5,801 nt of DNA from J088 sp003695505 [NCBI: Candidatus Dadabacteria bacterium] (GTDB lineage Bacteria > J088): NCBI GenBank assembly GCA_003695505.1, contig RFIY01000057.1, positions 1-5,801 on the forward strand. The letters run 5' to 3'. How positions within the stretch are numbered: the stretch's first letter is position 1; every line of letters starts with the position of its first letter. The translations under genes were made by a program, and so were the position numbers. Of this stretch, positions 2,425 through 5,491 are shown piece by piece. The notes beneath the pieces are model-generated. The model worked only from the letters and a program-made list of their open reading frames with translations, was not told the DNA's origin and did not search any database.

Positions 2425-3072
2425 ATGCCTGACCCAATATCCCGTTCACCACTGGCCGCTCTGAGGCACAACGCCAGCGCCTGGCTGATCGACCTGATTA
2501 CGACGCCGGCGGCGAAGATTCGCGGTCAGGTACTCCAGCACGCACGCGGGCGCGTCGCCGACATCGGCATCGGCGGAGGCGGCAGCTTGCGCCATTATCC
2601 GGCTGATGTCACCGAGGTGCACGGAATCGAGCCCGATCCGGCCGAGTGGCTGTTGCGCCGCCGCGCCGGAAAACTGCACGAGGGCATCCAGTTTGAGCTG
2701 GTTTCGGCCTCTGCCGAGGCGCTTCCGTACGAAGACCACTCGCTGGACACCGTGACGTTCCAGCTCGTCCTCTGCACGATCCCCGATCCGGTCGCGGCTC
2801 TGTCCGAAGCGCGGCGGGTACTCAAACCGGACGGCCGCCTGCTGTTCATGGAACACCTGCGCCACCCCGACGAACGGGTCGCGCGCTTTCAGGATCGTCT
2901 GCAGCCGCTGTGGGGGCGCATCGCCGGCGGCTGCCGCATCAATCAGGACACGGTCACCCTGCTCGAACAGGCCGGCTTCGACTTCGCCTGGAAAGAACAC
3001 GTCGTCGACCGCCAGCGCCCGCGCTTTTTGAGTCATCTCGCCTGGGGAATGGCGACGCCCCTCCTTCGCTAA
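2425..3072 (+). CDS. Class I SAM-dependent methyltransferase, METTL7/TMT1-like
   Basis: The 215-residue protein (from ATG 2425) carries the Rossmann methyltransferase signature. Motif I is VADIGIGGGG (44-53), an acidic ribose-binding residue follows in GIEPD (67-71), ASAEALPYEDHSLDTV (95-110) is the adenine-binding and motif II region, and ARRVLKPDGRLLFMEHLRHP (129-148) is the post-motif strand. The tail PLWGRIAGGCRINQDT (161-176) resembles that of the METTL7/TMT1 family, whose characterised human members methylate thiols, so a small-molecule substrate is more likely than RNA or protein. In-frame ATGs at 2377, 2401 and 2413 would add up to 16 residues; none has a good ribosome site, and 2425 has AAAGG very close. 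A TATGAT at 2412-2417 would put a transcript start almost on the 2425 ATG. The last codons and stop lie inside a palindromic repeat. Confidence 0.85.
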   Translation: MPDPISRSPLAALRHNASAWLIDLITTPAAKIRGQVLQHARGRVADIGIGGGGSLRHYPADVTEVHGIEPDPAEWLLRRRAGKLHEGIQFELVSASAEALPYEDHSLDTVTFQLVLCTIPDPVAALSEARRVLKPDGRLLFMEHLRHPDERVARFQDRLQPLWGRIAGGCRINQDTVTLLEQAGFDFAWKEHVVDRQRPRFLSHLAWGMATPLLR

Positions 3073-3084
3073 AGCTACGGAGGG
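3059..3084 (-). repeat. Palindromic repeat copy A, overlapping the methyltransferase 3' end
   Basis: Minus-oriented copy of the palindrome family. On the minus strand the left half is CCCTCCGTAGC and the right half is GCGAAGGAGGG, around a short TTTA centre. Its centre differs from other copies by a paired C-G to T-A change. It encodes Leu-Leu-Arg and the TAA stop of the methyltransferase. It may also act as a 3' transcript-stabilising hairpin. Confidence 0.85.
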
Positions 3085-3151
3085 CGGGGCCCTCATCCGG
3101 CGATGGCTACGCCAGGCAAGGCGGGACGACAACGAACTGATGCAAATCGAA

Positions 3152-3207
3152 CGAAAAGCGGGACCCTCCTTCGCCGGAGGCTACGGAGGGCAGGGACGGG
3201 ATTCGAA
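3152..3207 (-). repeat. Tandem duplicate of the tRNA-Gly 3' end, split by a palindrome
   Basis: Bases 3152-3163 and 3195-3207 together match, base for base, the 25 bp at 3208-3232, which span the T-loop, T-stem 3' strand, acceptor 3' strand and first trailer bases of the intact tRNA-Gly. The matching two parts are separated here by 31 bp (3164-3194) that contain palindrome copy B. It is an extra copy of the tRNA 3' end, not a gene. Confidence 0.85.
3164..3194 (-). mobile_element. Palindromic repeat copy B as a defined 31-bp insertion
   Basis: The palindrome itself is 3164-3190, with arms CCCTCC and GGAGGG and minus-strand halves CCCTCCGTAG and CGAAGGAGGG around CCTCCGG. Four further bases (CAGG on the plus strand) complete the insert. 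Both flanks are continuous in the neighbouring uninterrupted duplicate, so its limits can be read directly. No target-site duplication is obvious. Calling it mobile is inference: it encodes nothing and would need to be moved in trans. Confidence 0.6.
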
Positions 3208-3212
3208 CGAAA

Positions 3213-3285
3213 AGCGGGAGACGGGATTCGAACCCGCGACCACCAGCTTGGAAGGCTGGTGCTCTACCATCTGAGCTACTCCCGC
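3213..3285 (-). tRNA. tRNA-Gly(TCC)
   Basis: The 73-nt minus-strand sequence folds as a standard cloverleaf. The acceptor stem is GCGGGAG with CTCCCGC and the discriminator is T. The D arm is GCTC with GAGC, the anticodon stem CCAGC with GCTGG, the anticodon loop CTTCCAA, and the T arm GCGGG-TTCGAAT-CCCGT. The anticodon is TCC. No CCA is encoded; the next bases are TTTCG. In the conserved cluster this gene normally follows tRNA-Tyr within a few bases, but here 432 bp of repeats and a broken tRNA-Gly copy intervene. A TACAAT on the minus strand at 3304-3309, 18 bases upstream, could be a -10 of its own promoter, but I see no good -35. Confidence 0.96.
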
Positions 3286-3363: not shown

Positions 3364-3602
3364 CGAACCCGCGACCATGGGTGGTCTGCCTGTCCGCGCT
3401 TCGTCGCGAGGCGCGCAAGACGGCGTTGCAGTGTGGTTTCACGACCGAGCGCCCCGCAGGTGATGCCGATGCGCATCAGCGAGGAGCGCGACCGAGTGAA
3501 ACCGCGCTGCGGCGTCGTATCGCGTGCCGCAGCAGAAGCGGGGGCCGGCAGATCGCCCTACTTGGAAGGCTGGTGCTCTACCATCTGAGCTACTCCCGCA
3601 AA
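3364..3602 (-). pseudogene. Disrupted tRNA-Gly(TCC) copy
   Basis: Bases 3561-3602 are identical over 42 nt to 3247-3288 of the intact tRNA-Gly and its leader. They cover the 5' acceptor strand, D arm, anticodon stem 5' strand, anticodon loop and first following base. The similarity then stops. A further 14 nt, CGAACCCGCGACCA at 3364-3377, match the variable and T-arm region of the intact gene (3229-3242). Between the pieces, 183 bp replace four bases (CCAG) of the anticodon stem. The acceptor 3' strand is missing and palindrome C stands in its place. A functional tRNA is not expected. The 14-nt fragment is short, so the 5' piece is certain and the 3' piece likely. Confidence 0.8.
3379..3558. 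repeat. Imperfect 180-bp inverted repeat within the broken tRNA-Gly
   Basis: The left arm begins GGGTGGTCTGCC, passes CGCTTC, and ends near GGTTTCAC (3435-3442). The right arm read on the minus strand begins GGGCGATCTGCC, passes CGCTTC, and reaches GGTTTCAC (3496-3503). Arms are about 70 bp with scattered mismatches and small indels, by eye roughly 70 percent identical. The centre holds the perfect palindrome GATGCGCATC (3468-3477). No protein gene is visible. It could be a MITE-like remnant or a structured RNA or DNA element; its position between the two tRNA pieces suggests it is an insertion. Confidence 0.65.
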
Positions 3603-3620
3603 AGGAGCAAGGAGAACCGA

Positions 3621-3657
3621 CCCTCCGTAGCCCGCCGAAGCCTCTGGCGAAGGCGGG
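3621..3657 (+). repeat. Palindromic repeat copy D with an extra half-arm
   Basis: The core at 3631-3657 has arms CCCGCC and GGCGGG instead of CCCTCC and GGAGGG: both strands of one pair have changed together, so the stem is kept. The centre is CCTCTGG. One internal base differs, giving GAAG for GTAG. An additional left half, CCCTCCGTAG (3621-3630), precedes it, and a partial matching right half CGAAAAGGAC follows. Confidence 0.82.
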
Positions 3658-3670
3658 CGAAAAGGACCTG

Positions 3671-3717
3671 TCCTCCGTAGCCCTCCGTAGCCTCTGGCGA
3701 AGGAGGGCGAAGGAGGA
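3671..3717 (+). repeat. Palindromic repeat copy E, symmetrically nested
   Basis: The core is 3681-3707, with halves CCCTCCGTAG and CGAAGGAGGG around CCTCTGG. It is wrapped by a second pair of halves, TCCTCCGTAG (3671-3680) and CGAAGGAGGA (3708-3717), whose ends are again complementary. The 47-nt structure abuts the discriminator base of tRNA-Tyr with no spacer, so it forms the immediate 3' trailer hairpin of that tRNA. Confidence 0.88.
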
Positions 3718-3799
3718 TGGAGGGGGGAGGATTCGAACCTCCGAAGCATTCCGCAGCAGATTTACAGTCTGCCCCCTTTGGCCACTCGGGAACCCCTCC
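3718..3799 (-). tRNA. tRNA-Tyr(GTA)
   Basis: An 82-nt class II tRNA on the minus strand. The acceptor is GGAGGGG with CCCCTCC and discriminator A. The anticodon stem is GCAGA with TCTGC and the loop is CTGTAAA, giving anticodon GTA. A long variable arm (TGCGGAATGCTTC region) and T arm GGAGG-TTCGAAT-CCTCC follow. The CCA is not encoded; the next base begins palindrome E. It lies 45 bp downstream of tRNA-Thr, as in the conserved thrU-tyrU arrangement, and is probably cotranscribed with it. Confidence 0.96.
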
Positions 3800-3844: not shown

Positions 3845-3917
3845 AGCTGACGACCGGAATCGAACCGGTAACCTGCTGATTACAAATCAGCTGCTCTGCC
3901 AATTGAGCTACGTCAGC
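3845..3917 (-). tRNA. tRNA-Thr(TGT)
   Basis: A 73-nt cloverleaf on the minus strand. The acceptor is GCTGACG with CGTCAGC and discriminator T. The D arm is GCTC with GAGC, the anticodon stem GCTGA with TCAGC, the loop TTTGTAA, and the T arm ACCGG-TTCGATT-CCGGT. The anticodon is TGT. No CCA is encoded. It is the first gene of the minus-strand tRNA cluster, and the likely promoter lies just upstream at 3963-3992. Confidence 0.96.
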
Positions 3918-4083: not shown

Positions 4084-4500
4084 ATGCCTCAACCGCATAT
4101 CCGCATTACGCGCCGGTTTCATTTTTCGGCGAGCCATCGCTACTGGCAGCCCGCGTGGACAGACGAGGCCAACGAGCAGGTTTTCGGCAAGAATATTCAC
4201 TCACACGGCCACAACTACATCCTCGAAGTCACGATCGAGGGTCCGATCGACCCCGACACCGGGATGATTCTGAACCTGACCGACGTGAAACACCGCGTCA
4301 ACGACCTGCTCGAAAAATACTACGACCATCGCAACCTCAACGTCGATCACCCCGCCTTCGCGTCGGCGCAACCGACCACCGAACGGATTGCACTCCAACT
4401 TGCGCAGGAGGTACGCGAGCTGATCGATGATGGACACGTTCGCCTGTACCGGATCCGACTCTGGGAAACCGAGGATCTGTACGCCGAGGTGATCTGCTGA
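4084..4500 (+). CDS. PTPS/QueD-family protein lacking the catalytic Cys
   Basis: This 138-residue protein belongs to the 6-pyruvoyl-tetrahydropterin / 6-carboxytetrahydropterin synthase family (COG0720), cytoplasmic T-fold enzymes that convert 7,8-dihydroneopterin triphosphate. Zinc ligands are His18 in FSASHRY and His41 and His43 in HGHNY. DPDTGMILNL (57-66), Asp81-His82 in YYDHRNLNVDHP, PTTER (97-101) and LWETE (127-131) also follow the family. The catalytic Cys is missing: FGKNIHSHGH has Asn37 four residues before the HGH motif, where QueD has Cys, and lacks the two further residues of the mammalian-type C-x5-HGH loop. Activity alone is therefore doubtful. An in-frame ATG at 4015 would add 23 unrelated residues and overlaps the candidate -10, so 4084 is preferred despite a weak ribosome site. 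The stop overlaps the next start by one base (TGATG). Confidence 0.88.
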   Translation: MPQPHIRITRRFHFSASHRYWQPAWTDEANEQVFGKNIHSHGHNYILEVTIEGPIDPDTGMILNLTDVKHRVNDLLEKYYDHRNLNVDHPAFASAQPTTERIALQLAQEVRELIDDGHVRLYRIRLWETEDLYAEVIC

Positions 4501-4919
4501 TGCAGGTTCGCCTGGGTCGCCAGTATCGTTTCTTCGCCGCACACCGGCTCTACAACCCGGCCCTCGATGACGCGGAGAACCTGCGTATTTACGGCAAATG
4601 CAGCCATCCGAATGGCCACGGGCATACCTATCTGGTCGATGTCGTGGTCAGCGGCCCGCTCAATCCTGATACCCAGATGATCGTCGATCTGGACAATCTG
4701 GATGAGTGCGTCAACGCCGTCCTTGACACGATCGCGCACAAGCAGATCGAAGTCGATGTACCGGAACTGGCCGGACAGCGCTCGACAACCGAGAACGTCG
4801 CACGTTACCTGTTCGACAAACTTGACCCGGAAACGACGCGCCTGGGCATCGTCCTGGAGCGCGTCGAAGTCGCCGAGACCCGGAATAACCGCTTTGTTGC
4901 CGAAAGGGCCGCCGCATGA
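4500..4919 (+). CDS. PTPS-family 6-pyruvoyl-tetrahydropterin synthase-like, catalytic Asp replaced by Ala
   Basis: This 139-residue paralogue of the preceding protein is closer to the mammalian-type [18 protein letters not shown] (31-44) has the C-x5-HGH spacing, with Cys34 and zinc ligands His15, His40 and His42. [14 protein letters not shown] (95-108) and [10 protein letters not shown] (124-133) match the substrate-binding and C-terminal strands. Where active PTPS has Asp-His (LDHKNL-like), it reads IAHKQI: Ala79-His80. The charge-relay Asp is thus absent while the nucleophilic Cys is kept, the reverse of its neighbour. A strong ribosome site, GAGGTGAT (4486-4493), lies six bases before the ATG and inside the upstream gene. 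Stop and start overlap on both sides (TGATG, ATGA), so expression with PTPS1 and FolE should be tightly coupled. The product could be a tetrahydropterin or a 7-deazapurine precursor. Confidence 0.88.
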
Positions 4920-5491
4920 CCGAAAAGAACGATCCGGTCGAACCGCTGATTCGAGATCTGCTCAAATCGCTTGGCGAGGATCCCGACCGTGAAGGATTGC
5001 AGCGCACGCCCGAGCGCGTCGCGCGGATGTACCGGCAGATCCTGTCGGGCTACGATGCGGATCCGATCGAGATTCTCAACGACGCCGTCTTTTCGATCGA
5101 ATACGACGAAATGGTCATCGTCAAGGACATCGAGTTCTACAGCCTGTGCGAGCACCATATGCTGCCCTTTTTCGGCAAGGCCTTCGTTGCTTATGTGCCG
5201 GACAAGAAGGTCGTCGGCCTGTCGAAGATCCCACGCCTGGTCGACATGTTCGCCCGCCGCCTTCAGGTCCAGGAACGCATGACACAGCAGATCGCGGACA
5301 TCCTTGAGGAGATCCTGCAACCCAAGGGTGTCGCGGTAGCCATCAACGCCCGCCACATGTGCATGTCGATGCGCGGCGTGCAAAAGCGACAGGCCTCGAT
5401 GATCACGAGCGCCATGCGTGGCGCCTTTCGCGATGATGCACGCACCCGCGGCGAATTTCTGGCGCTGGTCACGAGCACGACGCACGACTGA
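4916..5491 (+). CDS. folE: GTP cyclohydrolase I (FolE)
   Basis: This 191-residue enzyme opens and rearranges GTP to 7,8-dihydroneopterin triphosphate, the first step of folate, biopterin and queuosine biosynthesis. The family signature is complete. [20 protein letters not shown] (19-38) is the helical N-terminal segment. [15 protein letters not shown] (74-88) gives zinc ligands Cys78 and His81 and catalytic His80. [10 protein letters not shown] (100-109) is the phosphate and GTP-binding segment. [13 protein letters not shown] (145-157) supplies the third zinc ligand, Cys149, and His147. The length is that of short bacterial type I enzymes, without a regulatory extension. The ATG overlaps the preceding PTPS stop by four bases and has AAAGGG upstream. 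Its product is the substrate of PTPS-family enzymes, so the three genes form a coherent module. Confidence 0.97.

What the first reader, a model, noticed from the sequence alone, without database searches (positions are those of the whole stretch)
4084..4919. Tandem PTPS paralogues with complementary broken active sites: candidate obligate heteromeric enzyme
Seen: PTPS1 has Asn37 at the catalytic Cys position but retains Asp81-His82 and all zinc His. PTPS2 has Cys34 in a C-x5-HGH loop but has Ala79 before His80. Each lacks what the other keeps. Known: in PTPS the active site lies between subunits, with the Cys from one subunit and the Asp-His charge relay from the other. Inference: a mixed oligomer would have interfaces with a complete Cys-Asp-His triad, while homo-oligomers would have none. 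The one-base overlap and strong internal ribosome site would favour equal expression. Both proteins being merely degenerate is less likely, because zinc ligands and folds are kept.
Basis: partly seen in the sequence, partly recalled or inferred. Interest (0 to 1): 0.85.

Follow-up and report, generated by a model that had tools for sequence, protein, structure and literature searches.

The report
Paired PTPS genes sharing one triad
Two neighbouring bacterial genes make look-alike subunits of a pterin-making enzyme in which each subunit appears to keep a different part of the catalytic machinery, and a similar division of labour has arisen repeatedly in unrelated bacteria.

Summary
The residues are as reported: PTPS1 (4084-4500) has Asn37 at the catalytic Cys position and keeps Asp81-His82; PTPS2 (4500-4919) keeps Cys34 but has Ala79-His80. 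Both keep the zinc histidines and overlap in an operon with the assembly's only FolE. They belong to an old, widespread A/B duplication, separate genes or fused; a fused form is the 'dual domain' bacterial PTPS known since 2006. In 197 readable pairs B always keeps Cys and no pair lacks Asp-His in both members. Fifty (14 representatives) are split like the window: Cys only in B, Asp-His only in A; the state needs at least 11 changes on the tree. In one phylum (Dadabacteria) 20 of 48 pairs are split, each the genome's only PF01242 match, and the lineages tested are under purifying selection in both genes. This supports a hetero-oligomeric PTPS with composite sites. The contact geometry was not shown. 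New variant of a known kind; nothing tested at the bench.

The parts
4084..4500 (+). PTPS1, the A-type PTPS: no catalytic Cys (Asn37), Asp81-His82 kept, zinc ligands His18, His41, His43 kept
   Evidence: nearest rows are A members in the tree
4192..4194 (+). codon of Asn37 (AAT) at the catalytic Cys position; loop two residues shorter than in PTPS2
4324..4329 (+). codons of Asp81-His82, kept
4486..4494 (+). GAGGTGATC, a ribosome-binding-site-like stretch inside the end of PTPS1, before the PTPS2 start
   Evidence: sequence; function inferred
4500..4919 (+). PTPS2, the B-type PTPS: Cys34 kept in C-x5-HGH, Ala79-His80 in place of Asp-His, zinc ligands kept
   Evidence: nearest rows are B members
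4599..4601 (+). codon of Cys34 (TGC), kept
4734..4739 (+). codons of Ala79-His80 (GCG CAC): Asp lost, His kept
4916..5491 (+). FolE, GTP cyclohydrolase I, the only PF01227 match in the held assembly; makes the PTPS substrate

Best explanation
PTPS1 and PTPS2 are the separate-gene form of the two-module bacterial PTPS (A and B halves of an old duplication). They assemble into a hetero-oligomeric T-fold ring enzyme that works on the FolE product dihydroneopterin triphosphate. Its active site is composite: zinc and the nucleophile Cys34 come from PTPS2 and the Asp81-His82 relay from PTPS1. The mirror site (Cys of A with Asp-His of B) has decayed. Shown: residues, operon, grouping with A and B modules, recurrence, purifying selection in relatives. 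Predicted: side-by-side model of a fused relative. Inferred: the assembly in the window, the contact, the reaction.
For: Split pattern in 50 of 197 pairs (14 of 113 representatives), always the same way round; B Cys kept in 197 of 197; no pair without Asp-His. 17 losses of the B Asp-His pair under irreversible loss, all where A keeps it. Within Dadabacteria there are intact pairs, pairs with only A Cys lost, and split pairs; A Asp-His is kept in 48 of 48 pairs; in 20 of 20 split genomes the pair is the only PF01242 match. Median dN/dS 0.027-0.169 for both members in three lineages of split pairs. L228 (same record as L328) has the same Cys-to-Asn change, with B FDY. FolE directly downstream in 107 of 200 pairs and an SDR reductase in 86 of 200. 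A fused split relative folds with pLDDT 95.3, pTM 0.89 and aligns over both halves with urate oxidase (Z 13.5, 223 residues, rmsd 4.0), so its halves sit side by side. A PTPS-II of Synechococcus, cited to a paper on single and dual domain PTPS, is reported active in vitro (PMC5041015, passages).
Against: The window is the only one of the 50 split pairs whose B keeps the His, so PTPS2 may keep activity of its own. Orthologous pairs with intact members are common. In 66 pairs (58 of them from the phylum of G004) A has neither Cys nor Asp-His and B has both, so there B must work without A's relay; one fixed geometry does not explain both patterns. No close relative of the window was found (best 47% over both domains), so selection on these two genes could not be measured. 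30 of the 50 split pairs come from one family. The contact that joins Cys to Asp-His was not seen in any structure here.
Confidence: 0.56

Rival explanations
1. PTPS2 is the catalyst and needs only its own Cys34, zinc and His80; PTPS1 is a structural or activating partner, as the degenerate beta subunit is for metformin hydrolase.
For: PTPS2 keeps His80, alone among the 50 split pairs. In 133 of 197 pairs B has Cys and Asp-His, and in 113 of these A lacks Cys, Asp-His or both. Metformin hydrolase needs an inactive partner subunit (PMC11399263, abstract and passages).
Against: No pair has lost Asp-His in both members (0 of 197), although it is lost in A in 90 and in B in 64. In the other split pairs B has lost the His, mostly to Tyr or Phe; a purely structural A would not need to keep Asp-His there.
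Confidence: 0.27
2. The pair has moved to another pterin reaction that needs no complete triad (for example side-chain removal, as in PTPS-III).
For: FolB and aromatic amino acid hydroxylase were not found in the window's assembly (assembly 84.5% complete). The SDR genes beside many relatives are of unproven function.
Against: No Glu at the Cys position, the PTPS-III hallmark (PMC2229834, passages); FolB is present in three of three Dadabacteria with split pairs that were tested; the FolE-PTPS-SDR context fits tetrahydrobiopterin-type synthesis.
Confidence: 0.12
3. Both genes are decaying remnants or an assembly error.
For: Long branch of the window pair (1.2 changes per column); fragmented metagenome-like assembly (395 contigs).
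Against: Open frames, overlapping starts, zinc, Glu and fold motifs kept in both; two-base codon differences; purifying selection in split relatives.
Confidence: 0.05

Closest known systems
Dual-domain bacterial PTPS (bPTPS-II) of Synechococcus, Kong et al. 2006 FEBS Lett 580:4900 (title seen in reference lists; details recalled)
   Same: Two PTPS modules, A then B; cyanobacterial fused proteins group by module with the others in the domain tree; PTPS-II activity in vitro is reported in PMC5041015 (passages)
   Different: One polypeptide; of 18 cyanobacterial fused loci 17 keep Cys in A, all 18 have Phe or Tyr for the A His, and B is intact in all 18; no split triad is described in the passages seen
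Single-domain PTPS of animals (rat 1gtq, human 3i2b)
   Same: Fold, zinc ligands, best solved relatives; a title speaks of an 'intersubunit catalytic triad motif' (Burgisser 1995, reference lists)
   Different: Homohexamer with every triad residue in every chain
Bimodular QueF (PMC5372742, passages)
   Same: Tandem T-folds; catalytic Cys kept in the C-terminal module only; active site formed between the two modules
   Different: Different reaction; fused
Metformin hydrolase MefH (PMC11399263, abstract and passages)
   Same: Adjacent paralogous genes, only the heteromer is active
   Different: Another enzyme family; all metal ligands in one subunit, no shared triad
QueD (6-carboxytetrahydropterin synthase)
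   Same: COG0720 fold and zinc motif
   Different: Both proteins score below the QueD cut-off

Membership tests
PTPS superfamily (Pfam PF01242) | score above the gathering cut-off of 22.4 bits | tested here: met
   115.8 and 91.9 bits
TIGR00039 6PTHBS subfamily | score above the curated cut-off of 125.5 bits | tested here: not met
   77 and 74.6 bits
QueD equivalog TIGR03367 | score above the curated cut-off of 89.25 bits | tested here: not met
   60.9 and 52.9 bits
Catalytic PTPS (PTPS-II) | Cys, Asp and His of the triad in one chain | tested here: not met
   PTPS1 lacks Cys, PTPS2 lacks Asp
Catalytic PTPS (PTPS-II) | three zinc histidines and the C-terminal Glu | tested here: met
   both proteins, window rows
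Catalytic PTPS (PTPS-II) | 6-pyruvoyltetrahydropterin formation | not testable with these tools
   no assay
Two-module (A/B) bacterial PTPS | PTPS1 groups with A modules and PTPS2 with B modules | tested here: met
   the five nearest rows of each are all A or all B; PTPS2 lies in a starred set of 17 rows, all B (96); PTPS1 lies in no starred set, so its place rests on weak forks
Two-module (A/B) bacterial PTPS | one fused polypeptide | tested here: not met
   two genes; 46 of 197 pairs are separate genes
PTPS-III (folate bypass) | Glu at the catalytic Cys position | tested here: not met
   loops KNIHS and KCSHPNG; the Glu as told in PMC2229834, passages

The most novel reading that the evidence does not exclude
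Split-triad PTPS pairs are obligate heteromers with half the usual number of active sites, reached independently many times and always the same way round (A loses Cys, B loses the Asp-His pair, in either order). They are built as a uricase-like ring of alternating A and B domains instead of a trimer of one kind, and lineages differ in which neighbour supplies Asp-His.
Probability: 0.25. Interest if true: 0.75.

Novelty: new variant of a known kind. Interest (0 to 1): 0.6.

Why it matters
If true, an intersubunit catalytic triad has been split between paralogues many times, with intermediates still alive (Dadabacteria holds intact, half-lost and split pairs). That gives a rare testable series for how homomers turn into obligate heteromers, and it warns that annotation by single-chain motifs would call such enzymes dead or mislabel them as QueD.

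Tried and rejected
A scan of viral contigs, which reaches close relatives only, found none for PTPS1; matches in plasmid records were weak (under 60% identity) and, where annotated, called QueD or 6-carboxytetrahydropterin synthase, some with queC or queE beside. The idea of a recent, lineage-specific duplication was dropped. A sign test on independent pairs had too few informative pairs (p 1), so I placed losses at random on the tree instead, which is cruder. Parsimony that allows regain gave 9 losses and 5 gains of the B Asp-His pair (P 0.004); irreversible loss gave 17 losses (5e-5 of 20,000 draws, that is one draw). The tree is a quick one, with 26 of 82 forks open. Rows dropped: 200 unique pairs to 197 with readable motifs, to 196 by length, to 113 by identity and state, to 85 by my removing 28 rows, all lacking A Asp-His, which works against my result. 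L026 is not a true pair; L096 and L104 have doubtful A loops. Which interface carries Asp-His: my recollection of the rat structure (Cys and Glu from one subunit, His from another, near the trimer-trimer contact) found no confirmation. No title or abstract start reporting a heteromeric or split-triad PTPS appeared in the listings, which cover open-licence papers only. PTPS1 and PTPS2 themselves were not folded.

Full report
The window is one whole contig (G000:C74, 5801 bases) of a 395-contig assembly, 84.5% complete, whose phylum has no other genome in the collection. Two PF01242 genes lie head to tail and overlap by one base; FolE follows with a four-base overlap. FolE is the only GTP cyclohydrolase I match of the assembly. 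A third PF01242 match (C250) reads HPHGY in place of HGH and looks degenerate, so the pair is the only good PTPS candidate of the held assembly.

The reported residues are right. PTPS1 lacks the Cys and keeps Asp-His; PTPS2 keeps Cys and has Ala-His. Both keep the zinc histidines and the C-terminal Glu. This is unusual: in the other 49 pairs of the same class B has lost the His (list).

Relatives. A first search of 41 genomes showed fused two-PTPS proteins in two phyla. Of the 80 named loci 67 hold a tandem or fused pair and 13 a single PTPS. Pairs occur in, among others, Dadabacteria, Calditrichota, Chloroflexi (Herpetosiphon), Acidobacteria (Terriglobus) and Cyanobacteria (Synechococcus, Prochlorococcus, Nostoc). 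In a tree of 102 single domains the A members need 2 changes and the B members 3, against about 31 when shuffled; PTPS1 falls with A and PTPS2 with B. Many forks are weak, and the place of PTPS1 has no starred branch.

States of 197 readable pairs (200 unique, 3 incomplete): A without Cys and without Asp-His, B intact 66; split (Cys only in B, Asp-His only in A) 50; A with Cys but without Asp-His, B intact 24; A without Cys, rest intact 23; all intact 20; A intact, B without Asp-His 14. B never lacks Cys and no pair lacks Asp-His twice. Sampling is uneven: 30 of the 50 split pairs come from one family of the G039 phylum, and at about 72% identity 14 split representatives remain of 113. On the tree of 85 representatives the split state needs at least 11 changes. 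With irreversible loss there are 20 losses of A Cys, 6 of A Asp-His and 17 of B Asp-His; random placement of 17 losses avoids double loss in 5e-5 of 20,000 draws, of 9 losses in 0.004. By His alone there is also no double loss: 90 pairs lack it in A, 59 in B, none in both; by that stricter count the window itself is not split.

Of 57 genomes 51 have PF01242 and 48 have a pair that I read (G403); of the other three, two have a single gene and one a partial match. The 48: 20 split, 7 with only A Cys lost, 19 intact, 2 incomplete. The split state occurs in three families. All 20 split genomes have exactly two PF01242 matches, the pair itself. One (G723, L328, the same record as L228) has Cys to Asn in A and FDY in B, the nearest to the window's pattern. 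A third PF01242 copy occurs in eleven genomes of family f316, whose readable pairs are intact, and in G745, whose pair has lost only the A Cys.

Selection. Median dN/dS (NG86, pairs with dS under 3; usable A and B pairs in brackets): Dadabacteria f123 A 0.05, B 0.076 (65 and 66 of 66); f315 g500, g502, g503 A 0.091, B 0.169 (10 and 11 of 15); G039 family A 0.054, B 0.027 (33 and 31 of 55; eleven members, ten split and one with an intact B); for comparison, G004 family, not split, A 0.181, B 0.123 (12 and 4 of 45). Both members are kept by selection, though dS is near saturation in the last two. The window has no close relative, so this is by extension.

Structure. A fused split relative (L008) is predicted at pLDDT 95.3, pTM 0.89, and the last strand of A turns almost directly into the first strand of B. 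The A half best matches human PTPS (Z 20.3) and the B half C. elegans PTPS (Z 18.2), and the whole aligns over both halves with urate oxidase (Z 13.5, 223 residues, rmsd 4.0) and GTP cyclohydrolase IB (Z 11.4, 200 residues, rmsd 4.7), which carry two T-folds side by side. So A and B are predicted ring neighbours at least in the fused form. Plasmodium PTPS is a dimer of trimers (PMC7546909, passages); a ring of A-B units would fit four domains better than three. That last step is inference.

Mechanism. The PTPS triad is called intersubunit in the title of Burgisser 1995 (reference lists). A mixed oligomer with Cys from B and Asp-His from A is therefore the simplest account of pairs where no chain has both. 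The 66 pairs where A has neither show that B must manage without A's relay in other lineages, so a single fixed geometry is not enough; this is open.

Pathway. FolE lies directly downstream in 107 of 200 pairs and an SDR reductase within 2.5 kb in 86 of 200 (some held flanks are short). In the Dadabacteria family f123 the SDR, not FolE, follows the pair in the loci examined. With pterin-4a-carbinolamine dehydratase in 15 of 16 genomes tested, the window's included, this fits tetrahydrobiopterin-type synthesis; aromatic amino acid hydroxylase was found in only 3 of 16 and not in the window's, so the use of the cofactor is unknown.

Known and new. A PTPS-II from a paper on single and dual domain PTPS is reported active (PMC5041015, passages). 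What did not show in the listings searched is the separate-gene form with complementary triads, its recurrence, and the one-sided loss pattern. QueF gives a solved precedent for a T-fold active site divided between two modules.

Noticed in passing
window 3213-3285, 3718-3799, 3845-3917 (-): tRNA-Gly, tRNA-Tyr and tRNA-Thr genes; a 42-base stretch reaching into the tRNA-Gly is repeated exactly at 3561-3602, where ARAGORN finds no gene.
   Followed up: partly
window 3613-3711: Two 49-base direct repeats, 86% alike, between the tRNA genes.
   Followed up: no
18 cyanobacterial loci, e.g. L247, L250, L264, L275: Fused PTPS in which A has Phe (17) or Tyr (1) for the catalytic His, keeps Cys in 17 of 18, and B is intact: a different division from the window's.
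   Followed up: partly
e.g. L109, L113, L115, L118, L122: Fused pairs whose A half has lost zinc ligands as well: 15 of the 66 pairs with A lacking Cys and Asp-His.
   Followed up: partly
24 representatives with altered B Asp-His: The His becomes Tyr or Phe in 15 of 24 (8 DY, 3 DF, 2 NY, 1 GF, 1 HY) and stays in 5 (4 EH, and AH in the window); aromatics may plug an unused pocket.
   Followed up: no
G000:C250 (L152), match 2864-3178: A third PTPS-like protein with HGY instead of HGH; no other PF01242 match and no FolB in the assembly as held.
   Followed up: partly
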